Origin: Gari tellinella
Taxonomy: Eukaryota; Mollusca; Bivalvia; Cardiida; Psammobiidae
Reading direction: 5' to 3'
DNA length: 64,000 nucleotides
Assembly: GCA_922989275.2 (NCBI GenBank)
Contig: OV277870.1
Coordinates: forward strand, 42,156,356-42,220,355
Position numbers and translations under genes: made by a program. How positions within the stretch are numbered: position 1 is the stretch's first letter; each line of letters opens with the position of its first letter. The notes beneath the pieces were generated by a model. The model was given only the letters and a program-made list of their open reading frames with translations, made no database searches and was not told the origin of the DNA. Of the stretch, positions 5,732-59,023 are shown in pieces.

Positions 5732-8700
5732 GTACATGTATTACATTGGCTACACATTTTCCCCACTTTAAACGAAAGGAAAGGACAAACGCGCAGCAAT
5801 TAAGGTAAAACGGAACACTGATTCAGATTAGTGGCAAATTTGTTCTAATTTTAGTTTCAAACAGTTTGGAGCCTGCTTAGACGTTGCACTCCTCTAGGCT
5901 TAATCTGACCTCATATTGTTTGCGATGGATAAAAGTTATTTCAATACATACGTATTTATTGTGAGGAAAGTATAAACCGTATTACTTTACAAGACGATAG
6001 TAAAACATCAAATTTCTTTCGAAGCTTTCTACTCTACTTTAATATTGCCCTTAGCTATTTCAATCTTTAAAACAATCAACCAATCTTTGTTTTAGTTGTC
6101 GTATTAGACGCATTTACTATATATTTATTATGCACTATCCTAATAATGATATGTAATAATCATTGCATGTGCATGTCTTTAAAACCATCAATCATTTTGT
6201 TTGGTAGTAACGATGATTTTTTACTGTCTTAATGATGTACAATTTCTTTTTTCAACGTTTATATCTGTGACGTTCGTTATTTAGACATCGGGGTGGAGCT
6301 GTGTGAGAAATATCTCCTTGACAACTGCAAAACTCCCAAATGCCGACTATATCACAATGTAGACCTACGCTTACCCTACATCTGGCAGGTGAAGGTGTGG
6401 GATAACTGGATTAACATAAGCCAGTCTGAGGCTGTAGAGAAAGAGTTCTGTGCCTTTCAAGACAAATCCGAACCATTATACGTGGTAAGCAATTTGTTAC
6501 TGGGACAAGCGATTAAATATGATGCATTATAGTTGAGTCGGGATATCTTGAGTTTGCGTCATTCGAATATAACCGTGTTTCAAAGATAAAGTCTATTCCT
6601 AGGAGAGGCGTCGAAACTCGACGTCTAATCTTGCTTAGTTCTGCCAAATTGTCCGAGAGTTTTTTACACCTTCACCGTTTCATTGTCGTCTGCTTCAATA
6701 TTGCTGTCTGCAAGATCGTTTCAAAGTAAGATTCAATGTAGTATGACTTATACATATCGAAACGAGTGTCAAATAGTTTTGATCCTGATAGACGCCGCGT
6801 TAAGCGGCGTCTGATAAGGATCCAAACTGTTTGCAAACACGCTTTTTAGGCGCCATGGAGAGTGAAAGGGTTAAAATTTACTGCAGAAATTTATTTGGCT
6901 TGAAAATACTGTTCCAAATGTTTTTCAGATTCGAAAGAATGTCATCTTTGTTACATATAATATGAGTTCACAGGGGTTGAAAATTTTGAAATTTGTCACT
7001 CGTCCTGCACATTAGACAATGAAGGGAAAAGTCACGCAGGACGAGCGGACGAGTGGAATTTTCGAACCCTGGTTCAATTTGTCTTTCATTTCATAGCAAA
7101 TGAGATATAGTGAACAGTAAACAGACGATGTGTAAGCAATACATATGAATGAAAATATTTAAAAAGGTGTTTCAGATAGAACAAGCCTTTCACAAGTTAG
7201 TGATTAGTTACCATGCTTATCTGTGTGATCTAGAGGTTTAACACATATTTCCCCTGAAACTACCAATGGATGATTCCAGTGTACAATAAAGGCTGGTCCA
7301 TTTTAGACTATTTAGGGTTGTTTTTTTTTATAATACATGTATATTGAAATATGACAAACAGTGAAGTCCCTGATTAGAGGGCTCCTGCAGGAGCCATCTA
7401 ATCAGGGACTTCACTGTTTGCATTAGACCAGTGTACTCTTAACAGGTACACTTTTGGTAAACGACGCATATATGCGTCACTAGGGATCAATGAGTTAAGG
7501 TGAAACAACTCATGCCAGTAATTATGCTATTTCCTTGAAAACATTGACGTGGATAATTCAGTAAGTACATAGTAGTTCGTGCATGCATTTTTGAAGACAC
7601 GACACTTAGGTGTTTTACATGACTGTTTCGTCCACTGCTACGGCCTTCCCCGGATCTACTGACACAGTGACAATTTGTTTTATTTCGAATCCTCGGACAT
7701 TTCTATAAATCTTTCGTTAATTGGCGAAAACAGTGTCGTATATTTAAGAGAGAAGGCCATGACTGATGACTGTAACCTTATTTAGCCAGGCCCCAATGTT
7801 ATTCAGAGTTTGAGCCCCCCCCCCCCCCCCCCCCCCCCCACAAAAAAAAACAAAACAAAAACAAACAAAAAACAAAAACAAACAAACAAACAAAAACCTT
7901 CCTACCTTGTCATGATTCTGAGGCTTAATTGTCATAGGGAATGGGGTTCAGTTTTTTATCGAGATTATACCCTCTGCAAAGAGCTAAAAGGTAGGCGGGA
8001 CGATGGTTTTGATCCATTGCGCTGGTTCGCAACGAATGAGATCAGCGGAAATTATCTTCCTGAAATCATCATAATTTCATCTCATTATCCCTCATTATTC
8101 TTCGGCGCCATATGACATATTTTGTGTCGCTGTGCCGTTAATCCAACTCATCCGTCCAATTACTATTTGAACTGAGTCTAAGGTCGTTTTTAAGCATTGG
8201 CTTAGTTGTATGTGCTAGCAAAAGCTCAAACCTGACCCAGAGAACGACCTCATACTCATCACAAACCCTTTATAACCGTGGGTCCTGATGTGTACTGAGT
8301 TCATCGTTTTTCTCACTTTCCTGTTGGTTTACCTTTCGTGTCCCCCCAAGTGGAGATATATGATCACAGTGCTAGTTTCTTGAAAGACACACGTGTATTG
8401 AGGAAATCTGAATCGTTAAACATCTGTTTTGAATAAACCTTAGTTTTGCAATGTTTTATTTTCAGAATGACTTGGAGAGCGACAGGTCGGAGTTAGTTCA
8501 AATAACATTCCAACCGACTATTAGCGCGCGAATCCCGGACAGTCGCACGCCATTGGAAGCTAGACGACTCTCAACAAGGTCTTATATATCCAAAGGCCCA
8601 ATGAGCTTCAGAACCCAATGGCGCTGGTATTATATAGACGATACTGGGGAAGAGCAAATATACAGTCCGGTATGTTGGAAATGTGTTTGATATATATAAT

Positions 8701-11700
8701 CAAATACTTGTATTATGACCACTGAATTGGGTAGAATTGTCCGTGTTTAAGATTGGTTATTGGCATCTAGCAAAATGAAAGTATAGTAGAAATACCATCA
8801 CTGCGGGCAAAGTGTCATCAAATGTATCGCTACGACAACTAATATGAGAATTATAATAGATTTGTATTCCTACGAAGGCAACTTTGTTCGTAGCAAACTA
8901 GCAAAACATTTGCCAGTATATACAATGATTTCGTAAATGTTAGTAATAATTTTAGCACACATGTAATCGTTGGGAAGACTCACAACATTACGGTGTGTAA
9001 AAGTAACAGCTGAAAAATCATGTACTATCCATATGTAGGATGATCTGCAGCATTCACTGGAGATGAAATATCTGTTTGGCCAGACAGAATACACGTTTAT
9101 GAAAGAGGGCTTTCCACACATTAACTTTTCATCAATGAGTTTGGTTAACGATGGGGGCTACACAACGATTTTTCGGAGACCACTGTTAGTGACAAGAGAC
9201 GACGTCGACGAAAGAAGTGTGTAAGTTGAACCTTAAGTGACTATGTCATGATTAAACTTTGATGTATTGGTGCCGGTTTGCACTGGAAGAAATTCGAATA
9301 AATAAGACTTAATCAAGTTAAAGTTATTGAGGTTCTATTGCATTTAAACCTTGTTAATTGTTATATGTTTACTTTCTGTTTTCTTTAACCCTTAGCCTGC
9401 CACTCACGACTATAGCTCCATATGCAAACAGCTTGGATCCGGATGAGACGCCGAGTAATTCGGCGTCTCATCCGGATCCAAGCTGTTTGACACTCGGACA
9501 ACATTTTCAGCAATTTTGAGCAATTTTGAAGCACTTTGAAACTTGAAGCAGACGAGAAATATAGCAGACGACAATTTATTTGGCGGGCTAAGGGTTAACC
9601 ACACGTGTTGATTGGAACTTTACAAAAAGGGTACGATTTACACTTATTCGAAGCATAAATACTCTTTTATAACCACAGTGAAACCGGTAAGGGGAAGGTC
9701 CGTCAGCCGGTGTGATCGTTCGTCCGTTACAGTTTTGGATAAAGTTCTGCAATTATCAGCATGTATTTTTTTCAATATTACTCAACTTGTATTTTTTTCA
9801 ATCTTTTACTTTTCGCTTTACACTCATATTGATGTATTTTCATTTAACCCTTTCGGCGCGAAATTAACCGTGAGGTTTTTACGCCTTATCGTTAGTTTGT
9901 CGTCTGCTTCAATACTGTTGTCTGCAATGTTGTTTCAAAGTTAGACGTTAAGGTTGTTTGACTTAAGAAATATCTAAACGAGTGCCAAACAGCCTTACGC
10001 GGCGTCTAAGTTGGATCCAAACTGTTTCCAAGTCGACTTTATGCAACTCCGGCGATGAAAGGCTTAACCCTTTACCACATAGAAGCGTCTTTTAGCGCAT
10101 TCTGCTTTATTTTCAACCTTCTTTAAGTGGTCACATAGTTTCACTACCAGAAACGGCCTATAAGGTAAATTAAAGTGTAAATTAGCAAATATACATGTAA
10201 AAATAAAGCGGACCACACCAGACGACATTGTTAATGTGAATGGGGTTCAAGATCACCGGTTTGTTTCAATCTCAATATGATTTATTATCACAAGATCACT
10301 GGTTTATTTCAATCTTAATATGATTTATTGTCACAAGACCACCGGTTTGTTTCAATCTCAATATATATGATTTATTGTCACAAGATCACCGTTTTATTTT
10401 AATCTCTATATGATTTATTGTCAAAAGATCACCGTTTTATATCAATCTCAATATCATTTTTAGTTAATATGTATTTTATATTACTGCATTCTCCTGAAAT
10501 TGTAGTCCAGCATCTCCAAACTCTGTTGTGGAGATAAAAGTGCCCTTGCCACGAGATTGGGCCCCATGGGATGTCGCCAATACAGCAGAGCTAATAAATC
10601 TGGCTAAAACATCGGACGAATACGCTAAGGTAGATGACAAGTTCTTTGAACGTCTTGACAGAGGTAGACTACACATTCAAGGTGTGTTTAGAGTCCAGAA
10701 CAGTGAACAGTGGAGCCAGTTTGCCAGGTAGGTCATCATAATAATCAATTTCTGAAAAACCGGATTATTCGCGAAAATATAAATTACGCGTTAATTCGCG
10801 AATGTGTTGCCTCGCGTCTCCAGTTTTGAAATTCGGTGACTTCTTAAAGCAGGTTGAAAGTTAAGTAGAATGTGCCTTAAGGCACATTCTGCTTTACTTT
10901 CAGCCTGCTTTTAGCTACCACTTGCTAGAAATATTGCATGATGTCGCGAATTAATACAAAATCGCATTACGCGAAATACCACACTATCATTGATTTAAAT
11001 GTGGTCACATGAAAGCGGTGGAAATAAATTCAAAAACTATTCCCATACTAGACTACATAATTTATTATATATTGTTTCTTTACTCTTTAAATCGTTCAAA
11101 CTGATATTAAGTCTGATATCGTGGATAAGGGTGTACCGTTTCGTGTTGGCAATGCGATGTACTCGCTTTCACAGACGGACGCAGTGTACATTGTGTACTT
11201 TCGGTTTCAAATATTTACTCGTTGGTGATGTTCCTAAACGCAATGACAGATACATCCACATTATGCACGATGATAATTGCAAAACGACCAGGATTCAAAT
11301 ATGCTTATAAAGCGTTTGAGCGGAGTCTGATATCGTTTTCTGCCTAGGGTGCTATAAGATTGTTATTGACTTTTAATTTCAATTCTAGCAAGGAGGCGAG
11401 TATGTTGAATGCCGTAAAGCGAGCTCAGAAGGCCAAGGATAAGGTGGACAAGCGTTACATGTTCCATGGCACGGATAACTTCGCGGCCGTGAAGGGAATC
11501 TGCCGTACCAACCTTGATCCAAGAGTGTCGGGCAAAAACGCCACCCATTTCGGCCAAGGAACGTACTTTGCTGCTGAAGCAAGACTGGCTCATCAATACA
11601 CGATAGCTCCTGATCGCTATGTTTTCATGGTGAATGTTCTTGTTGGAGATTTCACTAAAGGTGAGAGCGGGTATCGCAAACCGCCGGAGAAACCCGACAC

Positions 11701-11836
11701 CGACGGCGAGTTTTACGACTCCTGTGTCGACGATGAAAAACACCCGATGAAGTTTGTTGTGTTTGATAGTAACCAGTACTACCCCGAGTACCTTATCTGG
11801 TACAGGGATGCTGACGAAGACGATTCGCCGCAGTAA
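4172..11836 (+). CDS. PARP12-like: Gene A: CCCH zinc-finger / WWE / PARP protein (PARP12 or ZAP type), 5' end missing
   Basis: Six exons (4172-5731, 6285-6484, 8466-8669, 9051-9220, 10506-10727, 11389-11836) join with matching phases into 933 codons and a TAA stop. Domain order is: Pro/Gln-rich and charged low-complexity N-terminus; winged-helix-like block; four CCCH fingers; a fifth CCCH finger; two WWE modules; PARP catalytic domain. This is the architecture of vertebrate PARP12 and ZC3HAV1. Those proteins bind RNA through fingers 1-4 and poly(ADP-ribose) through the finger5-WWE block; PARP12 mono-ADP-ribosylates proteins, while ZAP is catalytically inactive and restricts CpG-rich RNA. A role in antiviral or stress RNA control is inferred from the family. 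The first coding exon is absent: the frame enters with two bases of a split Gly codon, as in gene B exon 2. Introns are 553, 1981, 381, 1285 and 661 bp and most carry MITEs. Confidence 0.9.
5732..6284 (+). other. Gene A intron, no element recognised
   Basis: It runs from GT at 5732 to AG at 6284. AT-rich sequence with no clear inverted repeat or coding match. Confidence 0.6.
6285..6484 (+). CDS. Gene A exon 3: CCCH finger 5 and start of WWE 1
   Basis: The acceptor is 'tatttag|acatc'; the first two bases complete the Asp codon opened by exon 2. The exon encodes a finger C-x7-C-x4-C-x3-H (CEKYLLDNCKTPKCRLYH) followed by LPYIWQVKVWDNW, the opening of the first WWE module. In ZAP and PARP12 the fifth finger sits directly against the first WWE domain, so the junction supports this family. 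The donor is 'acgtg|gtaagc' after 6484, phase 0. Confidence 0.9.
6655..6874. mobile_element. H3 MITE (left end lost) in gene A intron
   Basis: Core I palindrome at about 6776-6833 ('gacgccgcgttaagcggcgtc' at the centre). The right end 'gtgaaaggg' plus TTAA is present at 6864-6874; the left TTAA end is missing. Confidence 0.75.
6970..7072. repeat. small foldback element, about 100 bp
   Basis: 'caggggttgaaaatttt' at the left faces 'aattttcgaaccctgg' at the right. Inside, 'cactcgtcctgc' faces 'gcaggacgag...gacgagtg'. Family not recognised. Confidence 0.6.
7238..7498. mobile_element. H6 MITE, complete, TTAA at both ends
   Basis: TTAA at 7238-7241 and 7495-7498. The central palindrome at about 7356-7421 pairs 'gacaaacagtgaagtccctg' with its complement around 'ctcctgcaggag'. 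The end-to-end layout matches 15472-15713 and 54622-54869. Confidence 0.8.
7815..7896. repeat. poly-C run followed by A-rich (CAAA)n tract
   Basis: Twenty-five consecutive C from 7815 to 7839, then an A-rich tract with CAAA units, inside a gene A intron. Open frames on both strands here are artefacts of the homopolymers. Confidence 0.9.
8466..8669 (+). CDS. Gene A exon 4: end of WWE 1, start of WWE 2
   Basis: The acceptor is 'ttattttcag|aatgac', phase 0. It encodes 68 residues. The first half ends in LEARRLSTRSY, which resembles the RRLST strand closing WWE 1 in PARP12. The second half opens WWE 2 with TQWRWYYIDDTGEEQIYSP, whose W-x-WYY is the diagnostic aromatic patch. The donor is 'agtccg|gtatgt' after 8669, phase 0. 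Confidence 0.88.
9051..9220 (+). CDS. Gene A exon 5: end of WWE 2
   Basis: The acceptor is 'gatctgcag|cattca', phase 0. It encodes HSLEMKYLFGQTEYTF and then FSSMSLVNDGGYTTIFRRP, the second half of a WWE module (F-x-x-M and the R-R-P end). The loop between WWE halves is shorter than in human PARP12, so a small extra exon cannot be excluded. The donor is 'aagtgt|gtaagt' after 9220, phase 2. Confidence 0.85.
9385..9598. mobile_element. H3 MITE, complete with TTAA duplication
   Basis: TTAA at 9385-9388 and 9595-9598, ends 'cccttagcctgcca' and 'tggcgggctaaggg'. The near-perfect core I palindrome at about 9423-9491 is centred on 'cgagtaattcg'. TTAA plus CCCTT ends are typical of piggyBac-like elements (inference). 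Confidence 0.85.
9844..10067. mobile_element. H3 MITE with shortened core
   Basis: TTAA at 9844-9847 and 10064-10067. The core at about 9984-10029 has lost most of its left arm. Its right TTAA is also the left TTAA of the next element. Confidence 0.75.
10064..10173. mobile_element. H5 MITE, internally deleted, abutting the previous element
   Basis: Starts TTAACCCTTTACC at the shared TTAA and ends TTAA at 10170-10173. Only half of the core II palindrome ('gcgcattctgcttta') remains. Confidence 0.65.
10249..10461. repeat. minisatellite, about 50-bp unit, 4-5 copies
   Basis: Unit 'caagatcaccggtttgtttc' followed by 'aatctcaatatgatttattg', repeated in gene A intron and ending 44 bp before the acceptor of exon 6. 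Confidence 0.85.
10506..10727 (+). CDS. Gene A exon 6: start of PARP catalytic domain
   Basis: The acceptor 'attgtag|tccagc' is chosen because it keeps the frame with the phase-2 end of exon 5; the downstream 'tccag|cat' would break it. It encodes VPLPRDWAPWD, then VDDKFFERLD and IQGVFRVQNSEQWSQFA, the segment that opens PARP12-type catalytic domains. The donor is 'gccag|gtaggt' after 10727, phase 2. Confidence 0.88.
10757..10982. mobile_element. H15 element carrying an H5-type core II hairpin
   Basis: Ends rich in 'ttcgcgaa' (10768-10801) face 'cgcgaattaatac' and 'acgcgaaata' (10945-10979). Inside, 10845-10915 is core II, 'aagcaggttgaaagttaagt' pairing around 'gtgccttaaggcac', with H5-like flanks. 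Probably an H5 element inside another MITE. Confidence 0.6.
11389..11836 (+). CDS. Gene A exon 7: PARP catalytic core and stop
   Basis: The acceptor is 'aattctag|caagga'; 'ag' plus 'c' completes a Ser codon. It encodes RYMFHGTDNFAAVK (catalytic His of HGT), then FGQGTYFAAEARLAHQY (catalytic Tyr of GxGTYFA), then FYDSCVDDEKHPMKFVVF and YYPEYLIWY, ending DADEDDSPQ. His and Tyr of the H-Y-x triad are present. By aligning the YPEYLI strand, the third triad position falls on Lys of PMKFVVF, where PARP12 has Ile. No CaaX box is present at this C-terminus. Confidence 0.92.
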
Positions 11837-12645: not shown

Positions 12646-12895
12646 TACAGTGGAGAATACGTTATTCTTTCCCGTTTAAATGCAAACGAAACGCAAACGC
12701 AAAGCACTAAAACGTAGAAAAGTACAACTTTTTGACAATTCTGATAATTCATGTTTATCTTGGTGGCAAACAGTTTGGAGCCTGATCAGACGCCGGGTTA
12801 CCCGGCGTCTGATCTGGCTCCAAACTGTTTGCATTCAAAATAATAAATTTGGCGTTAACGCGTTTATTTGGGAAAAACACGTTTCCTCCACTGTA
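12646..12895. mobile_element. H1 MITE, near complete
   Basis: Starts TACAGTGGAGAA and ends in 'tcctccactgta'. Core I palindrome at 12767-12833, 'caaacagtttggagcctga' pairing around 'gccgggttacccggc'. TA-CAGT ends suggest pogo/Tc1-type mobilisation (inference). Confidence 0.85.
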
Positions 12896-12936: not shown

Positions 12937-13142
12937 TACAGTAAAACCTCGCTATTACGACCACTAGAAAAAGGCTAATTGGTTGTATAAAAGACAGGTG
13001 ACAGCTTAAAGCAAGGTAACAGTAAAACAGAAAGCTCCTAAAGGAGCTTTCTGTTTTATTGTCACCTTGCTTTAAGCAGTCATCTGTCCTCAGCACCTAA
13101 TAATTAATACAATTTTGTGGTCGTTGTAGAGAGGTTTTACTA
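12937..13142. mobile_element. H2 MITE, complete
   Basis: Ends TACAGTAAAACCTC and 'gaggttttactata'. Long central palindrome at 13009-13078, 'ttaaagcaaggtaacagtaa' pairing around 'gctcctaaaggagc'. Confidence 0.85.
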
Positions 13143-13954: not shown

Positions 13955-14173
13955 TTAACCCTTTCATGATCGTGAGAAATTAACCCATTTACCGCCAAAA
14001 TGTTGTCTGCAATATCATTTAAAGTTAGATTTAAGGCAGAATAACTGACGTAAGTTCAAAACAAATGGCAAACAGTTTTGAGCCTGATCAGACGCCGCGT
14101 AACGCAGCGTCTGATCAGGATCAAAACTGTTTGCAAATGCGTTTTATGACGTCATTGAGATTGAAAGGGTTAA
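13955..14173. mobile_element. H3 MITE, complete with TTAA duplication
   Basis: TTAA at 13955-13958 and 14170-14173, ends 'ccctttcatgatcg' and 'gattgaaaggg'. Core I palindrome at 14066-14133 centred on 'cgcgtaacgcagcg'. Confidence 0.85.
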
Positions 14174-14596: not shown

Positions 14597-14846
14597 TACA
14601 GTGGAGAATCTGTTATTCTTTCCCGTTTATACGCAAACGTACGCAAACGCAAAACACTAAAACGTATAAAAGTACAACTTTTTGACAATTCTGATAATTC
14701 ATGTTTATCTTGGTGGCAAACAGTTTGGAGCCTGATCAGACGCCGGGTTACCCGGCGTCTGATCTGGCTCCAAACTGTTTGCACGGCAAATAATAGTTTT
14801 AGCGTAAACGCGTTTATTGGGAAAGAATAACGTGTTCTCCACTGTA
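14597..14846. mobile_element. H1 MITE, complete
   Basis: Ends TACAGTGGAGAATCTG and 'gtgttctccactgta'. Core I palindrome at 14716-14783, identical at its centre to the copy at 12767. Confidence 0.88.
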
Positions 14847-15047
14847 TGTGTTCGTATAGGCATATTGTATTTAAACCAAATGTTTTTCAGTCTCGTAAAT
14901 CAAAACTGGCAGTAAGACATTTACAAAGGTAGTAATTAATTTACAATGCCAGGAAAATTTGTTATCACTCAAATTAAGGTTGTTTTTGGTATGCAAGGGC
15001 AGTTATATATAAGCAAGATTATAATACTAACAGACATTTATTTATTT

Positions 15048-15425
15048 AGTGCTCCCTCTTTAAACGGCTCTCCACGATTCCCTACCTACAGCAATGATTT
15101 CTGCCTTTTCCCGAAACAAGACAAGTATAACTAAATATTTCACTGCTGCAGTATCGTTTACTTTTTTCATAAACTTATCATCCATTGTTTTTTTTCCTCA
15201 AAGTTACACTATATTAGCCAATTTGAAGAAATATAATGATAAACGACACAACAGTTTAAATACAAATCAGACGCCACGTTACGCGGCGCCTGATATGGAT
15301 TCAAATTTTTTGCATTCTAATGGTATTAATTTCCCCTCCGTACGTCAACTCCCTCCAAACAACACACAAAAGCTTTGTCTCCCATTGGGTTTTGTTGTAG
15401 AGAGGGAGCACTGTATCTTGCTTTT
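15048..15425. mobile_element. H4 MITE, degenerate left half
   Basis: Left 'agtgctccctctttaaacgg', right 'gttgtagagagggagcactgta'-type end. Eroded core I at about 15252-15314, 'cagacgccacgttacgcggc'. Confidence 0.7.
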
Positions 15426-15471: not shown

Positions 15472-15713
15472 CCTCCCTGGTTAAAGGTTAAATGAAAAAT
15501 CCAGTTTCCATTTTAGTCTAGTCCATTTCTGACTTTTAAGGGTTGTTTTGTCAATGTTTGGCATTATGACAAACAGTGAAGACCCTGATCAGAGGGCTCC
15601 TTTCGGAGCCCTCTGATCAGGGTCTTCACTGTTTGCATAGGACAAGTGTACTATTCACATGTACACTGATTGAAAAGCACGCCTATATGCGGGACTAGGG
15701 TTCAAAGAGTTAA
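15472..15713. mobile_element. H6 MITE, complete with TTAA duplication
   Basis: TTAA at 15472-15475 and 15710-15713, ends 'ctctttcctccc' and 'caaagag'. Perfect central palindrome at about 15569-15636, 'gacaaacagtgaagaccctg' pairing around 'ctcctttcggag'. Confidence 0.88.
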
Positions 15714-16378: not shown

Positions 16379-16588
16379 TACAGTAAAACCTCTGTATAAC
16401 GATACCTTAATTATGTTAATTATAAAGTGTATTAAGACAGGTGACTGCTTAAAGCAAGGTGACAGTTAAACAGAAAGCTCCTTTAGGAGCTTTCTGTTTT
16501 ACTGTCATCTTGCTTTAAGCGGTCACCTGTTTGTTATACAATCAATTAGCCTACATCTTAGCGGTCGCAATAGAGAGATTTTACTGTA
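16379..16588. mobile_element. H2 MITE, complete
   Basis: Ends TACAGTAAAACCTCTG and 'agagagattttactgta'. Core at 16448-16519, 'ttaaagcaaggtgacagtta' around 'gctcctttaggagc'. Confidence 0.85.
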
Positions 16589-17778: not shown

Positions 17779-18229
17779 AACAGGAAATCCTCTATATTAC
17801 GACCACCTAAACGAAGGATAATTGGTTGCATACATGACCGGTGACGGTTTAAAGCAAGGTGACAGAAAAACAGAAAGTTCCTAAAGGAGATTTCTGTTTA
17901 CTGTCATCAAGCTTTAAGCAGTTTCCTGTGTTAAAAACCTAAGAATTAACACAATCAACCCTTTCACCGTCAGAATCGCCTAAAGTCGAATTTGCAAACA
18001 GTTTTGATCCTGATCAGACGCCGCGTTACGCGGCGTCTGATCAGGATCAAAACTTTTTGACACCCGTTTCGATATATCTTATGTCATACTCTCTTAATTC
18101 TAACTTTGAAATGATATTGCAGACTATAATATTGAAGCAGACGACACAATTACGGTGTAGGGGTAAAATACTCAAAAATAATTTGGCGGTGAAAGGGTTA
18201 AGTGGTGATAATAGAGAGGTTTTTCTGTA
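17779..18229. mobile_element. H2 MITE split by an H3 insertion
   Basis: Left half 17779-17954 ('caggaaatcctctatattac', core 'aagcaaggtgacagaaaaac'), right half 18202-18229 ('gtggtgataatagagagg' and 'ttctgta'). Removing 17955-18201 restores the H2 order seen at 12937 and 55449. Confidence 0.8.
17955..18201. mobile_element. H3 MITE nested in H2
   Basis: TCAA-CCCTTTCACCG at the left and 'cggtgaaaggg'-TTAA at the right; one target copy has a single change. Near-perfect core I at 17992-18059 centred on 'gccgcgttacgcggc'. Confidence 0.85.
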
Positions 18230-19153: not shown

Positions 19154-19586
19154 AACAGTTAAAAACTTCTATTGCGACCACTAAAACGAAGGTTAATTGA
19201 CTAGAAAATACAGACGGTTACAGCTTAAATAAAAGTAGCATTCTGTTTTACTGTCACATTTCTTTAAGTAGTTGTCTGTCGTAAACACTCAATAATTAAC
19301 CCATTACCCCATAGCCTGTTTCTAGTTTTGAAGATAGTTGACCAACTAAAGCAGGCTGAAAGTAAAGCAGAATGCGCCTTAAGGCGCATTCTTCTTTACT
19401 TTCAGCCTGCTTTAAGCTATTATCTGCTAGAATAAAGAAACTATTTATTATGAATCTTATTAGTTACAATATAAATTGGAACTATTTTCTTAAGTATAGA
19501 GGCTTGAATTAAAGGCGAAACATGTGTATTTATGGGGAAATGGGTTAACACAATTTAGTAGACGTAATAGGGAAGGTTTTACTGTA
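19154..19586. mobile_element. H2 MITE split by an H5 insertion
   Basis: Left 'cagttaaaaacttctattgc', right 'cacaatttagtagacg' through 'ggttttactgta'. The H2 core is shortened. Insertion point is the TTAA found at the same place in intact H2 copies ('aattaacacaattt'). Confidence 0.8.
19296..19548. mobile_element. H5 MITE nested in H2 with perfect TTAA duplication
   Basis: TTAA at 19296-19299 and 19545-19548, ends 'cccattacccc' and 'ggggaaatggg'. Core II at 19346-19413, 'taaagcaggctgaaagtaaa' around 'cgccttaaggcg'. Confidence 0.88.
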
Positions 19587-21151: not shown

Positions 21152-21519
21152 TACAGTGCTCCCTCTCTACAACGAAACCCAATGGAAGACACAAAATGTT
21201 TGTGTTGCTTGGAGGGAATCGTTATAGGGAGGTAAAATTAAGACTTGGGCCGGCTTACATTTGCAAACGGCTTGAATCCAGATCAAACGCCGCATACCGC
21301 GGCGTCTGGTCTGGACTTAAGCTGTTTCCAACTCGTCATTATATTTATTCTATCAAAATGTCCACTTCTATGTAACTTCGATAATAAACAGCAGACGACA
21401 ATTTGAAGCAGACGATACTGCAGCAGTAAAAGCGTTGTCCTGTTTAGGGAACTGCAGCAATGGTCGTTGTCAGGAGGGATTCGTTGTTGGAAGGGCAGTT
21501 GTAGGGAGAGAGCACTGTA
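21152..21519. mobile_element. H4 MITE, full length
   Basis: Ends TACAGTGCTCCCTCTC and 'gggagagagcactgta', 368 bp. Core I at 21262-21330 has a few mismatches ('gccgcataccgcggc' centre). Best reference for H4. Confidence 0.85.
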
Positions 21520-22648: not shown

Positions 22649-22898
22649 TACAGTGGAGAAAACGTTATTCTTTCCAAATAAACGCGTTTACGCTAAAACT
22701 ATTATTTGCAGTGCAAACAGTTTGGAGCCAGATCAGACGCCGGGTAACCCGGCGTCTGATCAGGCTCCAAACTGTTTGCCACCAAGATCAACATGAATTA
22801 TCAGAATTGTCCAAAAGTTGTACTTTTCTACGTTTTAGTGTTTTGCGTTTGCGTACGTTTGCGTTTAAACGGGAAAGAATAACAGATTCTCCACTGTA
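22649..22898. mobile_element. H1 MITE, inverted orientation, complete
   Basis: Starts TACAGTGGAGAAAACG and ends 'agattctccactgta'. Core I at 22713-22780 around 'gccgggtaacccggc'. Confidence 0.88.
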
Positions 22899-22917: not shown

Positions 22918-23166
22918 CCTGTAACCCTTTCACTGCTAACTTTTCCGTGAGATTTTTACCCATTCACCGTTTCATTGTCGTCTGCTTCAATTTTGATTTT
23001 TACAAGATCGCTTCAAATTAAGATTCATTGTAGTATGGCTTAAAGCATATCGATACGAGTGTCAAACAGTTATGATCATGATCAGACGCCGCGTTACGCA
23101 GCGTCTGATCAGGATCCAAACTGTTTGCAAACGCGCTTTTAAGCGTCATTGAGAGTGAAAGGATAA
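22918..23166. mobile_element. H3 MITE, decayed TTAA
   Basis: 'gtaaccctttcactgc' at the left, 'gagagtgaaaggataa' at the right. Core I at 23063-23129 around 'gccgcgttacgcagc'. Confidence 0.78.
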
Positions 23167-23633
23167 AATAGACTATAAACCTAAATTGACATAAACTTCG
23201 TGAATGGAGGCTAGGCGACTATATAAACATGTAAATATAAGTTTAGGAAAATGATATATCTGACGGTCTATTTTCATCCCTTTTTTTAATACCATGTGCA
23301 AGACAAAACCACAAATTTTCCTTATTTAAGTGCTTTTTTTATTGTATTTTTTTTGCAAAATCACCATTTTGTTTTCCGTATATTTAAAATACTATTCAGA
23401 ATTTGTCCACATCCGCATACACATGTCTATATGTACAGTAGAACTTGTGTCAAAAAGTCACTGGTATCTCTAAATACAAATGCAGCTTATTGCAGAAAAA
23501 ACAGTAAAGCTGAAAGTTAATATAGTCTTATTTCTTTAGATTTGTCTGAATCAACTTGCTACCTGTATTAACGACCGCACATACATTATCTTTTGTGAAG
23601 TCGCCTAAAGCTATATTTTTGTGCAATATACCA

Positions 23634-29035: not shown

Positions 29036-29085
29036 CTGCAAAAACAAGTGAAAAATAAGTGATGCAATATATTCAGTCACTTTAT

Positions 29086-30257: not shown

Positions 30258-30508
30258 TACAGTGGAGAAAACGTAATTCTTTCCCAATGAACGCGTTTAC
30301 GCCAAATCTATTATTTTCAATGCAAAAAGTTTGGAGCCAAATCAGACGCCGGGTACCCCGGCGTCTGATCAGGCTCCAAACTGTTTGCCACCAAGATAAA
30401 CAAGAATTATCAGAAGTGTCCAAAAGTTGTTCTTTTCTACGATTTAGTGCTTTGCGTCTGCGTTTCGTTTGCATTTAAACGGGAAAAAATAACATATTCT
30501 CCACTGTA
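30258..30508. mobile_element. H1 MITE, inverted orientation, just upstream of gene B
   Basis: TACAGTGGAGAAAACG to 'tattctccactgta'. Core I at 30320-30389. Starts 99 bp 5' of the gene B ATG, so it may overlap the promoter. Confidence 0.85.
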
Positions 30509-31878: not shown

Positions 31879-32116
31879 TACAGTTTATTTCCCATTTAAA
31901 CGCGAACGAAACGCAAACGCGTTGACATAAAATGTACAAAATAACACCTTTTTGACAATTCTGACTATATATTTTTATACGAGTGGTTAACAGCTTGGAG
32001 TCTGATCAGACGTCAGGTTACCCGGCGTCTGATCTGGCTCCAAACTGTTTGCAATGAAAATAATAGTTTTAGCGTAAACGCGTTTATTGGGAAAGAATAA
32101 CGTTTTCTCCACTGTA
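31879..32116. mobile_element. H1 MITE, left end deleted
   Basis: 'tacagtttatttcccattt' at the left has lost the 'ggagaa' block; right end 'cgttttctccactgta' intact. Core I at 31986-32053 around 'caggttacccgg'. Confidence 0.78.
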
Positions 32117-33058: not shown

Positions 33059-33440
33059 TACAGTGTTCCCTCTCTACAACGACACTCCCTACAACGATTC
33101 CTTCCTTACAACGACCCTTGCCACTGTTCCCCAAACAATTCATTTATGTCCAACCTTTTCATTGCTTCAATACCGTCTGCTTAAATTTGACTTCTAATGT
33201 TGTTCTCAAAGTTACCAGTATATTTTTAAAAATGTACATTATGATAGAATGAATATAATGACAAATGACAAACAGATTGAATCCAGATCAGACGCCGCGT
33301 AAAGCGGCGTCTGATCTGGATTCAAACTGTTTGCAAATGTAAGCCAAGTCTTCAATTTCCCTCTCTATAACGATTCCCTCCGAACAACACATACAATCTG
33401 TGTCTCCCATTTGGTGTCGTTGTAGAGAGGGAGCGCTGTA
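33059..33440. mobile_element. H4 MITE, full length, inverted
   Basis: Ends TACAGTGTTCCCTCTC and 'gagagggagcgctgta'. Near-perfect core I at 33267-33335, 'caaacagattgaatccagat' around 'ccgcgtaaagcgg'. Confidence 0.85.
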
Positions 33441-34071: not shown

Positions 34072-34321
34072 TACAGTGGAGAATCTGTTATTCTTGCCCG
34101 TTTAAACGCAAACGTACGCAAACGCAAAGCACTAAAACGTAGAAAAGAACAACTTTTGGACAATTCTGATAATTCTTGTTTATCTTGGTGGCAAACAGTT
34201 TGGAGCCTGATCAGACGCCGGGTTACCCGGCGTCTGATCTGGCTTCAAACTGTTTGCACTGCAAATAATAGTTTTAGCGTAAACGCGTTTATTGGGAAAG
34301 AATAACAGATTCTCCACTGTA
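34072..34321. mobile_element. H1 MITE, complete
   Basis: TACAGTGGAGAATCTG to 'cagattctccactgta'. Core I at 34191-34258. An older H1/H3-like core scrap sits at about 33990-34035. Confidence 0.88.
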
Positions 34322-34354: not shown

Positions 34355-34571
34355 TTAACCCTCGTGTCGCCAAAGTATCGTCTGCATTGGTAGTGTCGTC
34401 TGCAGCGTTTTTTAAAGTCAGCTTTAGGGCTGTTTTAACTGAAGAACTGTTTATAATACGAGTGTCAAACAGTTTAGATCATGATCAGACGCCGCGTAAC
34501 GCGGCGTCTGATCAAGATCCAAACTGTTTGCAAAGTCTCCATTTGGGCGCCGTTGGCGGTGAAAGAGTTAA
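34355..34571. mobile_element. H3 MITE, complete with TTAA duplication
   Basis: TTAA at 34355-34358 and 34568-34571, ends 'ccctcgtgtcgcca' and 'tggcggtgaaagag'. Core I at 34466-34532 around 'gccgcgtaacgcggc'. Confidence 0.86.
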
Positions 34572-37751: not shown

Positions 37752-38038
37752 CGTAACCTTTTACCTGCTTTTAGAGTATAGTGACGCTTTTCTTAAATAG
37801 TAAAGAACCAAATCAAGCATCTCATTTACAGGTAGTGTACATATGAATATTACACTTGTCCTATGCACACAGTGTAGACCCTGATAAGAGGATTCCTTAA
37901 GGAGCCCTTTGATCAGGGTCTACACTGTTTGCCATTTTGAAATATATTGTTAAAATCAACCCTCAATAGCCAAAAATGGACTAGACTTATTTTGAAATTG
38001 GAATTGTACATTAAAAGTTTCAGGAGTGAATGAGTTAA
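37752..38038. mobile_element. H6 MITE, inverted, left end decayed
   Basis: Core at about 37870-37932, 'acacagtgtagaccctgat' facing 'gatcagggtctacactgttt', around 'attccttaaggagc'. Right end 'gtgaatgag' plus TTAA at 38035-38038. Confidence 0.72.
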
Positions 38039-38063: not shown

Positions 38064-38315
38064 TTAACTCTTTACCTGATAGCCTGTTTCTATTATTGAA
38101 GATAGGTGACTACTTAAAGCAGGTTGAAGGTAAAGCAGAATGCGCCTTAAGGCGCATTCTGCTTTACTTTCAGCCTGCTTTAAGCTATAATGTGCTAGAA
38201 TATAGAAAATATTCCCTATAATATATATTCATGACTGATTAAATTGGAACTATTTTCTGCAGCGGAGGAATAAATCATATTCGCTAAAAGGCGCCTCTAT
38301 AGGGGGAAGGGTTAA
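38064..38315. mobile_element. H5 MITE, complete with TTAA duplication
   Basis: TTAA at 38064-38067 and 38312-38315. Core II at 38114-38183 around 'cgccttaaggcg'; tail 'gcgctaaaagg'-like block before the end. Confidence 0.87.
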
Positions 38316-39610: not shown

Positions 39611-39860
39611 TACAGTGGAGAATCTGTTATTCTTTCCCGTTTAAACGCAAACGTACACAAACGCAAAGCACTAAAACGTAGAAAAGAACAACTTTTGGAC
39701 AATTCTGATATTTCATGTTTATCGTGGTGGCAAACAGTTTGGAGCCTGATCAGACGCCGGGTTACCCGGCGTCTGATCTGGCTCCAAACTGTTTGCACTG
39801 CAAATAATAGTTTTAGCGTAAACGCGTTTATTGGGAAAGAATAACAGATTCTCCACTGTA
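39611..39860. mobile_element. H1 MITE, complete
   Basis: TACAGTGGAGAATCTG to 'cagattctccactgta'. Core I at 39730-39797, almost identical to the copy at 34072-34321, so a recent family member. Confidence 0.9.
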
Positions 39861-44774: not shown

Positions 44775-44986
44775 TTAACCCTGTGCCTACTGGTCGTAAC
44801 TTTACGGAGTTTACACACTATTTGAATCTAAAAAGACGCCGCGTAACGCGGCGGCTCATCTGGATCCAAACTGTTTGACACTCGTCTTAAGGTTTGTTTA
44901 ATTAAAATAATGCATAAATCTAAGCTGAACAAATTTTGCAGACGACAATGTCAAAGCGGACGTCTGTGCAGCAGAATAAGGGTTAA
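44775..44986. mobile_element. H3 MITE, complete with TTAA duplication
   Basis: TTAA at 44775-44778 and 44983-44986. Diverged core I at 44817-44881 around 'gccgcgtaacgcggc'. Confidence 0.82.
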
Positions 44987-45863: not shown

Positions 45864-45950
45864 TACAGCGTTCCCTCTCTACAACGGTCCTCCCAACAAC
45901 GACTCTCTTCTTACAACGACCCTTGTCGCAGTTCCGTAAATAGGACAAGT
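45864..45950. mobile_element. H4 fragment (one end)
   Basis: TACAGCGTTCCCTCTC through 'acgacccttgtcgcagttcc', the first quarter of H4. It is fused to the 3' side of the LINE endonuclease frame below. Confidence 0.7.
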
Positions 45951-46525
45951 GACAGAGGCGCGTGATCTGACCATTCATTGAAATTTTCCACAGCAAAATC
46001 AGTGGCATACCTGAAATCAGATTCTTTCAGCAATAAATAGTCGATCATGCTTGCCCCGTGCTTATTACAAAAGGTGTATGATCCTACATCACAATCCGTA
46101 CCCAGTCTGCCATTTGCTATTCGTAGACCTGTATATTTACAAAGTTCAATAATAATATGCCCGTGAGAATTACAATGTTTATCTATTGAGGTTCTTCCCA
46201 TGTGCTTGTCGGGAACATAATTGGGCTCATCTAAATAATAATTTTCCCTGTCATATACTATGAAATCGTGTTTACTGCCAACCCGCCCATTAAAATCACC
46301 TGTAATAAATATTGAACCTAAATTTTTGAAATCACATATATCGCTCTGAAGGATTTGAAAAAGGTCTACACTGTGTACATTATATGCAGGAGAATCCTCA
46401 CACCAAATATAAACACCACAAATATAAATATCACGATCAAGATTAAAATAATGCCTACAAAGTTTTAACCATATAATTGTATCATAATGATTCTTTACTA
46501 CAGTAACACCCTTTTCTTTATTTTT
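45950..46525 (-). pseudogene. LINE endonuclease (EEP) fragment
   Basis: An open minus-strand frame without a start reads KGVTVVKNHYDTIIWLKL, DRDIYICGVYIW, FITGDFNGRVG, and RYATDFAVENFNEWSDHAPL. GDFN and SDH are the catalytic Asp/Asn and His motifs of apurinic-type endonucleases of non-LTR retrotransposons. The N-terminal strands and the reverse transcriptase are missing, and the frame runs into H4 sequence at about 45950. No internal stop was seen. Confidence 0.85.
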
Positions 46526-46649
46526 AGCATCTCATAGTATCGTTCTTATATATATAGCAATTCAAAACATAATCTCAATCAAAATAATTTTTTGGGTTCA
46601 TATAATTATGTACACATGGAGAATTAAATTTTCCTTTTTTAAAAAATTC

Positions 46650-52130: not shown

Positions 52131-52135
52131 TAACT

Positions 52136-52492
52136 GCTGCCTAGGCAGCATAATGCTGCTCGGGCAGCATATATGCTGCTCGGGCAGCATCTAGATGCTG
52201 CTCGGGCAGCATAATGCTGCTCGGGCAGCATCTAGATACTTTAGACCCCTTTGGTACAACTCGCAAAAGCAACTGAAAGGAACGAGCGTATTGATTGGAT
52301 AACACTAAATGCTATAAATAACTGCTGCCTAGGCAGCAATATGCTGCTCGGGCAGCATATTTGCTGCCTGAGCAGCATATATGCTGCTCGAGCAGCATCT
52401 AGATGCTGCCTAGGCAGCATAACGCTGCCCGAGCAGCAAATATGCTGCTCGAGCAGCATCTAGATACTGCCCGAGCAGCATCTATACTTTAG
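52136..52492. repeat. satellite of GCTGC...GCAGC dyads in two blocks
   Basis: Five dyads (GCTGC, four bases, GCAGC-type) at 52136-52232 and eight at 52323-52480, with spacers AT, ATAT or CTAGAT. Each block ends in the same 'catctagatactttagaccc'-type sequence and 'ctttggtaca', and both begin 'ctataaataactgctgccta', so the second is a longer duplicate of the first. Confidence 0.88.
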
Positions 52493-52524
52493 ACCCCTTT
52501 GGTACACCATACAAGTGTGCGCAG

Positions 52525-53031: not shown

Positions 53032-53276
53032 TTAACCCTTTCACTGCCAACTGTTTCGTGAAATGTTTACCCCTTCACAATTTCATTGTCGTCTGCTTCA
53101 ATTTTGTTGTCTGTAATATCGTTTCTAAATTAATTTTAAGGCAGTATGACTGAAAACAGTTCGATACCAGTGTCAAACAGCTTGGATTCTTATCAGATGC
53201 CGCGTTACGCGGCGTCTGATCAGGATCCAAACTGTTTGCAAATACGCCTTTTGGCGTCATTGAGATTGAAAAGGTG
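53032..53276. mobile_element. H3 MITE
   Basis: TTAACCCTTTCACTGCC at the left, 'gagattgaaaaggtga' at the right (TTAA lost). Core I at 53173-53240 around 'gccgcgttacgcggc'. Confidence 0.82.
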
Positions 53277-53299
53277 AAAACAAGGTGACAGTTAAACAG

Positions 53300-54070
53300 G
53301 AATCCCCGAAGACCAGCAAACAACTCCAGATACCGGATCTGGAAATCTAAACCAATCGAATACGCCAATGTCATATGCAATGGCAGCAAGTAAAGAGGAT
53401 TGTCTGAAACGAGTTCATGAATTTTGTGAAAATGTTTTTGAAATTTTCGAACGCAAGCCAGTGTCATTATTGATAGAGCACATCGTTTATGTAAAATAAT
53501 CGGTGGAAAAACGAAAGCTATAGTAACGACATTTGGTATCACGGAAATGATGGTCAAAGATGCACTGAAAACGTCAATCTTAAGACAGGGCTGCCATTTC
53601 TCCGGATTTTTTCCCATTACATGCATGGTAGCTTAAAGCAGGCTGAAAGTAAAGCAGAATGCGCCCTAAGGCGCAATCTGCTATACTTACAGCCTGCTTT
53701 AAGTAGTCGCATGTCAACAAAACAAGAAAAAGGCTATGGGGTAAAGGTACGATTCGTAAAATCGCACTTGAAAAATACAAATTTGGAAATCTTAGGATTT
53801 TTTATGTCAACGTGTGGCAGCCCTGTTAAGGATGCCCCCCTACTCCGTCTTTGATCAGTATCCACACGTTGTCCAGGAGAGACGTAAAGCATTATACCCA
53901 CTGATGAGGAAGCCAAAACTTGAGGACAAACGTGCAGTTATGGTGCAAGACAAAAAATGACAAACTGTTTACGGCTGATGATGTAGCGTAGGAATACGAA
54001 GAAGAGCGTGTCTTTTCGGTAGGGTCATGGAACATTGAGGGGCTGAAAAAATTTGAAACGATAGCGCTGA
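53300..54070 (+). pseudogene. decayed LINE: ORF1 fragment and first residues of ORF2 endonuclease
   Basis: Frames read KEDCLKRVHEFCENVFEIFE, then VIIDRAHRLCKIIGGKTKAI after a frameshift, then (after the H7 insert) FDQYPHVVQERRKALYPLMR and DKRAVMVQDK. The IDRAHR and DQYP..V.ERRK.LYP motifs are typical of LINE ORF1 proteins. Further on, VFSVGSWNIEGLKKFE resembles the start of an EEP endonuclease. Stops and frameshifts show it is dead. Confidence 0.75.
53586..53825. mobile_element. H7 MITE inserted in the LINE ORF1 remnant, carrying H5/core II sequence
   Basis: Ends 'cagggctgccatttctccgg' and 'gtgtggcagccctg'. Flanks ttaaga and ttaagg (6 bp, one change). Core II at 53634-53702 with H5-like flanks, so probably an H5 inside H7. 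Confidence 0.8.
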
Positions 54071-56784: not shown

Positions 56785-56790
56785 TTGTTT

Positions 56791-57055
56791 CAGGGCTGCC
56801 ATTTCTCCGGATTTTTCCTTAATCTTCGGATTTTTTTCTTGTACCTCGTAGCTTAGAGCAGGCTGAAAGTAAAGCAGAATGCGCCTTAAGTAAGGCGCAT
56901 TCTTCTTTACTTTCAGCCTGCTTTAAGGCAAGCAGCCACATGTCAACAAAACTAGAAACAGGCGATGGGGGAAAAGGTACGATTCATAAAATCGCACTTG
57001 AAAAATGCAAATTCGGAAATCTTAGGATTTTTTATTTCAACTTATGGCAGCCCTG
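56791..57055. mobile_element. H7 MITE, perfect 6-bp duplication TTGTTT
   Basis: Same composite as 53586-53825 (core II with H5 flanks inside CAGGGCTGCCA ends). Core at 56855-56926 with 'cgccttaagtaaggcg' centre. Flanks ttgttt at 56785-56790 and 57056-57061. Confidence 0.85.
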
Positions 57056-57237: not shown

Positions 57238-57389
57238 CAGGGCTCCAAATTACTGAAATGAGAGGGAGTAAACTGCACAAATCTAACATTTCCTAACCCA
57301 TATTAGTATCAAACCCTATGGTGTTACTACTCATTAGGGTTAAAGCAGAGGTTTTAGTTTTTTAAATACTCCCCTTATCTGGAGCTTTG
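57238..57389. mobile_element. H14 MITE, core deleted, perfect 6-bp duplication TATCTT
   Basis: Ends 'cagggctccaaat' and 'cttatctggagctttg'. Flanks tatctt at 57232-57237 and 57390-57395. The core III arm pair is gone. Confidence 0.78.
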
Positions 57390-58330: not shown

Positions 58331-58570
58331 TACAGCGGAGAATCTGTTATTCTCTCCCAATAAACGCGTTTACGTTAAACCTATTATTTGCAGTGCAAAC
58401 AGTTTGGAGCCAGATCAGACACCGGGTAACCCGGCGTCTGATCAGGCTCCAAACTGTTTGCCACCAAGATAAACATGAATGATCAGAATTGTCCAAACGT
58501 TGTTCTTTTCTACGTTTTAGTGTTTTGCGTTTGCGTTTAAACGGGAAAGAATAACAGATTCTCCACTGTA
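58331..58570. mobile_element. H1 MITE, inverted, complete
   Basis: 'tacagcggagaatctgttat' to 'cagattctccactgta'. Core I at 58395-58462 around 'accgggtaacccgg'. Confidence 0.87.
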
Positions 58571-58641
58571 CATCTGCCCCTCAAATTAAAAATCCTGACC
58601 CTTGTGTCTGCAGCAAAACTGACTTAATTATGTAAACAAAG

Positions 58642-59023
58642 TACAGTAAAACCCCTCTAAACCGGAACCTCTAAATACCGGATTTCTCTCTAAACCGGAC
58701 AAAACCTTTGGTCCCGTTTCCAACCCTTCTTTATTTTTACCCATTACCATAATTACACCTTTTTACTTCTTTGATTTATACACACACTGAAGAAAAATAG
58801 TGTATTCTTTCTTGAAGATGATAGCTTAAAGCAGGTTGAAAGTAAAGCAGAATGCGCCTGAAGGCGCATTCTGCTTTACTTTAAACCTGCTTTAAGTGGT
58901 CATCTATCTTCCATACTAGAAACAATTGTTAAAAAGGTTAAAACCCCTCTAAACCGGAAACCCCTTTAAACCGGACCTTTGTGTAGTCCCCATACATGTC
59001 CGGTTTAGAGGGGTTTCACTGTA
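58642..59023. mobile_element. H8 MITE with an H5 insertion
   Basis: Ends 'tacagtaaaacccctctaaa' and 'agaggggtttcactgta', with 'ccggacaaa' repeats internal to each. A worn inverted H5 (core II at 58823-58896 around 'cgcctgaaggcg') occupies about 58735-58940. Confidence 0.8.

What the first reader, a model, noticed from the sequence alone, without database searches (positions are those of the whole stretch)
6655..59023. One central hairpin type is shared by MITE families with unrelated ends
A 60-70 bp near-perfect palindrome ('caaacagtttgga', then 'gatcagacgcc', a short centre, and the complement) sits in the middle of H1 (TA-CAGTGGAGAA), H3 (TTAA-CCCTTT) and H4 (TA-CAGTGCTCCC), with a relative in H6 (TTAA-CTCTTT). 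The ends and target sites differ, implying different transposases. So the hairpin behaves like a module independent of the terminal repeats. It could be a replication, transcription or small-RNA-producing structure, or a sequence that helps an element be amplified. I know of no described MITE system with a common core across superfamilies.
Basis: partly seen in the sequence, partly recalled or inferred. Interest (0 to 1): 0.88.

Follow-up and report, generated by a model that had tools for sequence, protein, structure and literature searches.

The report
Shared hairpin inside unrelated mobile DNAs
A near-perfect 65-72 base DNA hairpin sits in the middle of small jumping DNAs that use different insertion machinery, apparently because one hairpin-bearing kind jumped into others, and its mirror symmetry is kept as sequences change, which suggests that the shape itself helps such elements multiply.

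Summary
The host is a 1.6-Gb eukaryote genome. About 317,000 genome places match the inner 31 bp at up to 2 mismatches (control 0). Consensus A hairpins pair at 31-32 of 32 positions (one 3-copy family: 24). Between A-core families changes are almost all compensated; in single copies they are mostly one-sided.

'Unrelated ends, common core' is right, but the route is ordinary for at least two, probably three, families. H4 shares about 110 bp of one flank with the TTAA families and contains a decayed TTAA terminus; this junction exists about 16,200 times. B6 and BpB, with a second hairpin type B, show the same anatomy. So hairpin-bearing TTAA MITEs (probably piggyBac-type) inserted into other MITEs, and the composites amplified. 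For H1, the largest family, no such scar was found; only the hairpin and about 8 edge bases are shared.

What the hairpin does is unproven. Compensated change between families points to selection on structure, independent of the transposase. Palindrome-driven conversion remains a serious rival; a genome count of hairpin-less copies did not settle it.

The parts
6671..6874 (-).
7355..7420 (.). E-type hairpin (relative of the A core) in a TTAA element
9385..9598 (+). T9 TTAA element (TTAACCCTTAGCC ends); hairpin 9425-9489
12646..12895 (-). H1, 250 bp, TA-CAGTGGAGAA ends; hairpin 12767-12831
12939..13142 (.). BpA: TA-CAGTAAAACCTCTCTATTACGAC ends with a B2 hairpin at 13005-13076; flanked by TA on both sides
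13955..14173 (-). T3 (H3) TTAA element; hairpin 14069-14133; single-strand DNA fold -32.6 kcal/mol, z -13.7
14597..14846 (-). H1, 250 bp; hairpin 14717-14781
15045..15415 (-). H4 composite (TA-CAGTGCTCCC ends); degenerate hairpin 15248-15312
15570..15635 (.). E-type hairpin in a TTAA element
16381..16586 (.). BpA element, hairpin 16448-16519, flanked by TA
17955..18201 (+). T3 (H3) TTAA element; hairpin 17995-18059
19345..19416 (.). B1 hairpin in a BT (TTAA) element
21152..21519 (+). H4 composite; hairpin 21264-21328; the long flank holds the TTAA-family arm GCAGACGACAATTTGAAGCAGACGA...GCAGCAGTAAAAGCGTT
22649..22898 (+). H1, 250 bp; hairpin 22714-22778
22921..23167 (-). T3 (H3) TTAA element; hairpin 23063-23127
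30258..30508 (+). H1; hairpin 30323-30387
31879..32116 (-). H1, older copy whose core edge reads CCACTCGT, as in TTAA families; hairpin 31987-32051
33059..33440 (-). H4 composite; hairpin 33269-33333
34072..34321 (-). H1, 250 bp; hairpin 34192-34256
34355..34571 (-).
37866..37931 (.). E-type hairpin in a TTAA element
38113..38184 (.). B1 hairpin in a BT (TTAA) element
39611..39860 (-). H1, 250 bp; hairpin 39731-39795
44775..44986 (+). T44 TTAA element; hairpin 44813-44877
53032..53278 (-). T3 (H3) TTAA element; hairpin 53174-53238
53586..53825 (+). B6: CAGGGCTGCCAT ends, B1 hairpin 53632-53703, and the BT arm with fossil terminus GGCTATGGGGTAAAGG|TACGATT
56791..57055 (+). B6 composite, 6-bp duplication TTGTTT
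58331..58570 (+). H1; hairpin 58396-58460
58644..59021 (.). BpB: TA-CAGTAAAACCCCTCTAAACCGG ends around a BT element; B1 hairpin 58825-58896

Best explanation
The hairpin is the native centre of a large group of non-coding TTAA-target MITEs, most likely driven by piggyBac-type transposases (inferred from TTAA sites, TTAACCC ends and intact piggyBac genes in the genome). Copies inserted into MITEs with other ends; some of these nested composites were then amplified by the host element's transposase and became new families (shown for H4 and B6, supported for BpB in two copies, inferred for BpA and H1). In four of these five the TTAA-element arms shrank on one or both sides (BpB keeps most of both), but the hairpin stayed palindromic. 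Because compensated changes separate A-core families while single copies mostly decay one-sidedly, I infer that only copies with an intact hairpin found new families. The hairpin would then be a structural aid to amplification that does not depend on which transposase acts. Most likely it works as nucleic acid structure (a DNA hairpin or cruciform that eases end pairing or copying); this last step is inference only.
For: Same core with different ends and target sites: 183 cores sorted by flank as H1 87, H4 18, T5 18, T3 16, T34 5, T8 5, T9 3, T44 3, unassigned 28. H4 long flank against T3, T5, T34, T44 and T9: 0 of 500 shuffles each, z 8.9 to 18.7. H4 keeps GCAGTGAAA..GTTAGA where TTAA families end GCAGTGAAGGGGTTAA; the junction has 16,236 places, control 0. 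B6 keeps GGCTATGGGGTAAAGG of the BT terminus and about 17 bp (one mismatch) of its other arm.

Palindromy: consensus 32/32 in T3, T5, T34, T8, T9 and H4, 31/32 in H1, 24/32 in T44 (3 copies). Family differences: T3-T9 4 pairs both sides, 0 one side; T3-H4 3/0; T3-T8 5/0; T9-T8 9/0; H4-T8 8/0; T3-H1 2/1. Single copies: T3 5 both/59 one; T5 10/52; H4 8/50; H1 19/195; T34 1/22; T8 0/27; T9 0/4. Covariation score 0.219 against 0.092 shuffled, 0 of 500. Old and young H1 differ at 15 of 75 linker bases but 0 of 65 core bases.

piggyBac transposases: 86 matches, several full-length without stops.
Against: H1, the largest family, has no fossil TTAA end and no significant flank homology. Both-sided changes in single copies exceed chance (T5 10 against 3.3; H1 19 against 9.7; T3 5 against 2.5; H4 8 against 3.6), so some conversion, or subfamily structure, exists. 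B families are less clean: B consensus stems pair at 34-35 of 36, and BT-B6 and BT-BpB differ by 2 one-sided and 0 two-sided changes, on 6 and 2 copies. BpA has the same short-arm edge on both sides, as if folded back once, so symmetry can arise by mutation. Hairpin-less H1 copies are not specially rare next to linker-less ones (703 against 49). No transposase was tied to these ends, and no functional data were available. Families were found through the hairpin, which biases towards composites that kept it.
Confidence: 0.55

Rival explanations
1. Neutral hitch-hiking with self-correction: TTAA MITEs are so common that other MITEs captured them by chance, and the palindrome stays symmetric because template switching at a hairpin copies one arm onto the other. 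No function.
For: Nested capture needs no function. BpA looks folded back. Paired changes in copies exceed chance in T3, T5, H4 and H1. 12 of 14 changes at the H1 mismatch pair restore pairing.
Against: In A-core families, differences between consensus stems are nearly all paired, while changes in copies are mostly one-sided at similar overall divergence. The fixed mismatch pair 17/49 of H1 is kept in 61 of 75 copies; by eye only 2 of the roughly 100 places listed read as restored. So correction looks slow.
Confidence: 0.27
2. RNA-level benefit: transcribed copies fold (basal stem from the terminal repeats plus central hairpin), so that the host trims or tolerates them, for example by the inverted-repeat-triggered excision called SOS splicing. 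Insertions are then less harmful whatever the transposase.
For: All 10 consensus elements folded have the terminal repeats paired at the base and the hairpin inside. Excision of DNA transposons from animal mRNA, triggered by terminal inverted repeats, is cited in PMC13155455 and, without the trigger, in PMC13247085 (passages).
Against: Terminal repeats pair as well with the hairpin left out, in 10 of 10. No G-U pair is fixed in the fully palindromic A-core consensus stems. Zhao 2026 itself was not held.
Confidence: 0.2
3. Small-RNA source: the hairpin is a miRNA- or siRNA-like precursor that feeds or evades silencing.
For: Length 65-72 nt and a stable fold.
Against: The loop is 3-4 nt; no Rfam hit at gathering threshold in the window; a mollusc small-RNA survey reports no evidence of a dedicated endogenous siRNA pathway (PMC12479628, passages), and that the host is a mollusc is my guess. 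No small-RNA data here.
Confidence: 0.06
4. The cores in H1 and H4 are separate late insertions of H3 into each copy.
For: H4 does hold a TTAA element arm.
Against: The same H4 junction recurs 16,236 times. 55 of 58 paired-end H1 copies hold the core and the other 3 hold remnants of it. H1 cores have their own consensus.
Confidence: 0.02

Closest known systems
MER6/MER6A: V-SINE domain inside a Tc1/mariner MITE (PMC6887750; abstract and passages read)
   Same: A conserved domain of one element class was, by that paper's reading, captured by nested insertion into a MITE of another class and then amplified with it.
   Different: There the domain is about 120 bp, from a SINE, one capture, 385 to 2,923 BLAST alignments in the genomes that hold it. 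Here it is a palindrome from TTAA MITEs, with about four or five inferred captures and hundreds of thousands of copies.
Highly conserved domains shared by SINE families (V, CORE, Deu; background in PMC6887750, passages)
   Same: One core carried by several elements.
   Different: Those are carried by retroposons, which share one copying route (recalled); here the carriers need different transposases.
mPing and Stowaway MITEs with internal sequences that raise or lower transposition (PMC12595863, passages)
   Same: Sequence inside an element, apart from the terminal repeats, affects its activity.
   Different: Those effects belong to one transposase system each; no palindrome shared across superfamilies is described in the passages seen.
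Prokaryotic REP/REPIN palindromes (search listing only)
   Same: Short palindromic repeats at high copy number.
   Different: Bacterial and linked to REP-associated tyrosine transposases; not known to me as the core of elements with different ends.

Membership tests
MITE (non-autonomous DNA transposon) | Short, non-coding, high copy number | tested here: met
   H1 about 250 bp; about 317,000 places for the inner core; 56,410 for exact young H1 flanks
MITE (non-autonomous DNA transposon) | Terminal inverted repeats and target-site duplication | tested here: met
   138 of at least 155 H1 ends preceded by TA; TTAA at both ends of the T families; exact 6-bp duplication in 6 of 9 B6 end pairs, of the other 3 one 5/6, one 7 bp, one none, read by eye
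piggyBac superfamily (T families, E, BT) | TTAA target site | tested here: met
piggyBac superfamily (T families, E, BT) | Mobilised by a DDE_Tnp_1_7 transposase with matching ends | tested here: inconclusive
   86 PF13843 matches in the genome, but the ends of no autonomous copy were read; Kolobok also uses TTAA (recalled)
Tc1/mariner, pogo type (H4, BpA, BpB; H1 less sure) | TA target site, CAGT-type ends | tested here: met
   the end motif as a pogo trait is recalled
Tc1/mariner, pogo type (H4, BpA, BpB; H1 less sure) | Transposase with matching ends | not tested
   no search for pogo or mariner transposases was run
Composite MITE by nested capture (as MER6) | Remnant of the captured element's arm and terminus inside the host element | tested here: met
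   H4 and B6, and BpB in 2 copies; the genome-wide count of the B6 junction did not complete
Composite MITE by nested capture (as MER6) | The same, for H1 | tested here: not met
   no significant flank homology beyond the core edge
microRNA precursor | Dicer-type small RNAs from the stem | not testable with these tools
   no small-RNA data; no Rfam hit at gathering threshold in the window

The most novel reading that the evidence does not exclude
A selfish structural module: a hairpin whose shape, more than its sequence, raises the amplification of any cut-and-paste element that carries it, and which has passed by nested insertion between MITEs of at least three target-site types. In effect it is a mobile booster shared by unrelated transposases, now numbering perhaps over half a million copies in one genome.
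Probability: 0.33. Interest if true: 0.9.

Novelty: new variant of a known kind. Interest (0 to 1): 0.72.

Why it matters
Why some MITEs reach huge copy numbers is an open question, and terminal repeats alone do not answer it. Here the same internal structure recurs in several of the most abundant short repeat families of one genome, across different target-site types, with compensated changes. That offers natural replicates for asking whether an internal DNA or RNA structure drives MITE success. It also documents nested capture as a repeated route by which new MITE families arise.

Tried and rejected
Searches outside this genome for the core found nothing: viral contigs (A, E and B patterns) and genome contigs (A pattern); the tool notes that records near the window's own genome may be left out. 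Rfam found nothing in the window at gathering threshold and ARAGORN no tRNA. Six core and end words searched inside paper texts gave 22 papers; judged from titles and abstract starts in the listing, none concerned this repeat.

Homology of H1 arms to other families was tested three ways (local alignment, prefix alignment anchored at the core, separate consensus of old copies). It stayed at the level of the 5-6 bp edge, with marginal scores (old H1, long side: T9 24 and T5 41 of 1000 shuffles; short side: T9 6 and H4 16 of 1000; young H1, long side: T34 7 of 1000; short-side local alignment with T3 12 of 500). I dropped the idea that H1 visibly contains a TTAA arm.

I hoped that a lack of hairpin-less H1 copies would show selection. 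The counts (703 hairpin-less against 56,410 with a hairpin-sized gap; linker-deleted 49) show instead that the hairpin is a deletion hot spot; the few sequences shown include both CAAACAGTTTG and CAAACTGTTTG leftovers, so such losses recur. The full-linker count did not complete, nor was the genome count of the B6 junction or of the GCAGACGA arm. The idea that the hairpin is needed to pair the terminal repeats in RNA was not borne out.

Rows dropped before counts: 28 of 183 cores left unassigned and 5 of 59 B hairpins; overlapping duplicates removed by context; T44 left out; copies with more than 12 core substitutions left out of the pair counts and of the mismatch-pair count (75 of 87 H1 copies kept). 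The old H1 set is the 31 of 87 copies with mid-range long-flank scores, so the lowest-scoring copies were left out. The 26 cores were picked by hand. The 30 loci L001-L030 were chosen by the core pattern on C1, so family shares use the 103 cores of window plus L031-L050. That sample sits at places I chose, and the window itself was chosen by others. The B-E half-stem comparison fixes the register at the hairpin axis, chosen after looking.


Full report
Setting. The window lies in G000:C15:42156356-42220355 of a 1.5976-Gb genome in 80 contigs; at least 19 contigs reach tens of megabases.

Observation. A 65-bp near-perfect palindrome (type A) occurs 31 times in the window and 105 times in 264 kb (window plus 20 stretches of 10 kb at places I chose), at 40 or more of 65 matching bases, against 0 in reversed sequence. 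The inner 31-bp pattern with up to 2 mismatches has 317,359 forward and 317,210 reverse matches genome-wide; the pattern is almost palindromic, so these are nearly the same places, and the control is 0. Scaling the 74 cores in the 200 kb outside the window would give roughly 0.6 million; that is my extrapolation from a small sample.

Families. Flanks sort the A cores into families. H1 is a 250-bp TA element. H4 is a TA element of about 365 bp. In the 103 cores of window plus the 20 stretches: H1 35, H4 14, T3 13, T5 9, T34 5, T8 5, T9 3, T44 2, unassigned 17. A relative, E, lies in another TTAA family (14 copies found, consensus stem 33/33), and T8 bridges A and E in sequence (28 of 33 half-stem bases shared with E, 27 with T3). 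A second hairpin, B (72 bp), occurs 55 times in the same 264 kb, 0 in the control. Over all fetched loci B lies in a TTAA family (BT, 33 copies), in two TA families with CAGTAAAACC ends (BpA 13, BpB 2) and in a family with CAGGGCTGCCAT ends (B6, 6), with 5 unassigned. Of nine B6 end pairs, six show an exact 6-bp duplication by eye. B1 and B2 halves each share 18 of 33 bases with E when set on the hairpin axis (5 and 2 of 20,000 shuffles), so A, E and B may be one old hairpin family; for B this is likely rather than certain (T9-B2 shares 12 of 33, 2,807 of 20,000 shuffles).

How much of the repeat landscape this is. Of 78,622 bp with self-match depth of 6 or more in the 264 kb, 45,646 bp lie by a recognised hairpin, while 28% of all bases do; a further 11,439 bp hold a half hairpin (57 of 126 remaining segments; reversed control 0). 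Twelve remaining segments exceed 500 bp (11,873 bp) and were not analysed. This partly answers the worry that families were found only because they hold the hairpin.

Origin of the sharing. The long flank of H4 aligns with the long flanks of T3, T5, T34, T44 and T9 (z 8.9-18.7, 0 of 500 shuffles each); with T8 and H1 it does not. It runs through GCAGACGACAATTTTAAGCAGACGA to GCAGTGAAA..GTTAGA, where the TTAA families end GCAGTGAAGGGGTTAA or similar. Only then does the TA-element sequence begin. The short arm of H4 shares only its first bases with them. The junction occurs 16,236 times, so it is one ancestral capture that was amplified. B6 has the same anatomy on its short side: the BT arm up to GGCTATGGGGTAAAGG, then foreign sequence, and about 17 bp of the BT arm on the other side. 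BpB, in two copies, holds a BT element with most of both arms. BpA has the short-arm edge of BT on both sides of the hairpin, as if folded back. H1 has only the hairpin plus CAA on one side and CACTC on the other, in older copies; further similarity is at best marginal. Its core differs from T3 by two compensated pairs and one half pair. Since A cores occur with TTAA and two TA ends, and B cores with TTAA, two TA and one 6-bp end, core and end groupings disagree; I infer about four to five joinings.

Selection or mutation. A-core family consensus stems pair at 32 of 32 (H1: 31; T44, 3 copies: 24). Between these families (T44 left out) changes come as pairs: 4/0, 3/0, 5/0, 9/0, 8/0 and 2/1 (both sides/one side) for T3-T9, T3-H4, T3-T8, T9-T8, H4-T8 and T3-H1. 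Within families, single copies carry mostly one-sided changes: T3 5/59, T5 10/52, H4 8/50, H1 19/195, T34 1/22, T8 0/27, T9 0/4, although two-sided ones exceed chance in the first four (expected 2.5, 3.3, 3.6, 9.7). On 26 hand-picked aligned copies (23 distinct) the covariation score is 0.219 against 0.092 shuffled, 0 of 500, and slid controls are at most 0.047. The fixed mismatch of H1 persists in 61 of 75 copies, and 12 of the other 14 restore pairing; by eye 2 of the roughly 100 places listed read as restored. Old and young H1 differ at 15 of 75 linker bases, 2 of 65 short-arm bases and 0 of 65 core bases. I read this as selection for intact hairpins among founding copies. Against it: B families show one-sided consensus differences (BT-B6 0/2, BT-BpB 0/2, BT-BpA 5/1), on few copies; BpA shows that fold-back can create symmetry; and a direct count did not help. 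Young H1 with a hairpin-sized gap: 56,410; hairpin-less: 703; linker-deleted: 49, with the full-linker count unanswered.

Mechanism. A benefit common to piggyBac-like, pogo-like and 6-bp-TSD elements cannot rest on one transposase, and the sequence varies widely while pairing is kept (A and B half stems share 12 to 19 of 33 bases). So the structure itself is the likely object. The eight consensus hairpins fold as RNA at -57 to -63 kcal/mol; one genomic copy folds as DNA at -32.6 kcal/mol, z -13.7. I favour an effect at the DNA level (cruciform or hairpin at replication or synapsis), because the loops are 3-4 nt and no G-U pair is fixed in the fully paired A-core stems; RNA-level tolerance is a close rival. 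None of this was tested.

Possible drivers. The genome has 86 PF13843 (piggyBac transposase) matches, several full-length without stops and in groups with equal scores. The 701 bases beside two of these genes (L051, L052) are 99% identical, and both contain a decayed E-like TTAA element (L051:213-413). Whether this lies inside the transposon or beside it in a duplicated segment is open. Transposases for the TA and 6-bp elements were not searched for.

Known relatives and literature. The nearest precedent is the V-SINE domain in the MER6 Tc1/mariner MITE (PMC6887750, abstract and passages), by the same nested route. Effects of internal sequence on activity are known for Stowaway-related elements and mPing (PMC12595863, passages). 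For bivalves, a considerable MITE share is reported, with no such core in the passages seen (PMC10294476). Searches, judged from their listings, in a library that lacks most subscription papers, gave no described hairpin shared across MITE superfamilies. That is weak evidence of novelty.

Noticed in passing
window 4150-5805 (+) and 27549-29069 (-): Two open frames of 552 and 507 aa with PARP12-like tandem CCCH zinc fingers (PF25261), and a PARP catalytic match at 11351-11833 (+): probably PARP12/ZAP-like genes.
   Followed up: partly
window 45914-46528 (-): Weak match to the endonuclease of a LINE-type element (PF14529, E 0.0015, below cut-off).
   Followed up: no
window 52166-52488: Cluster of AGCAGCAT / TGCTGCTCGGGCAGCA palindromic repeats of another kind.
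   Followed up: no
window 17504 and 27443; L039:4254-4578: A different palindromic element (centre like AGGCTCAAATCTGACC), not obviously related to the hairpins described.
   Followed up: no
window 26295 and 30672: Another palindromic repeat, TTGGATAAAATAATATGTTGC..., in two copies.
   Followed up: no
G000:C7:73854474-73857203: The H4 junction occurs here repeatedly, mostly at 108-bp steps, so part of the composite seems to have become a tandem array.
   Followed up: no
L051:213-413 and the matching place in L052: A decayed E-like TTAA hairpin element beside or within two 99% identical piggyBac loci.
   Followed up: partly
T3 long arm, e.g. window 6671-6769: The T3 long arm holds an internal end-like motif (GAAACGGTGAAGGGGTAAA) before its real end, as if a TTAA terminus had been added outside an older one.
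   Followed up: no
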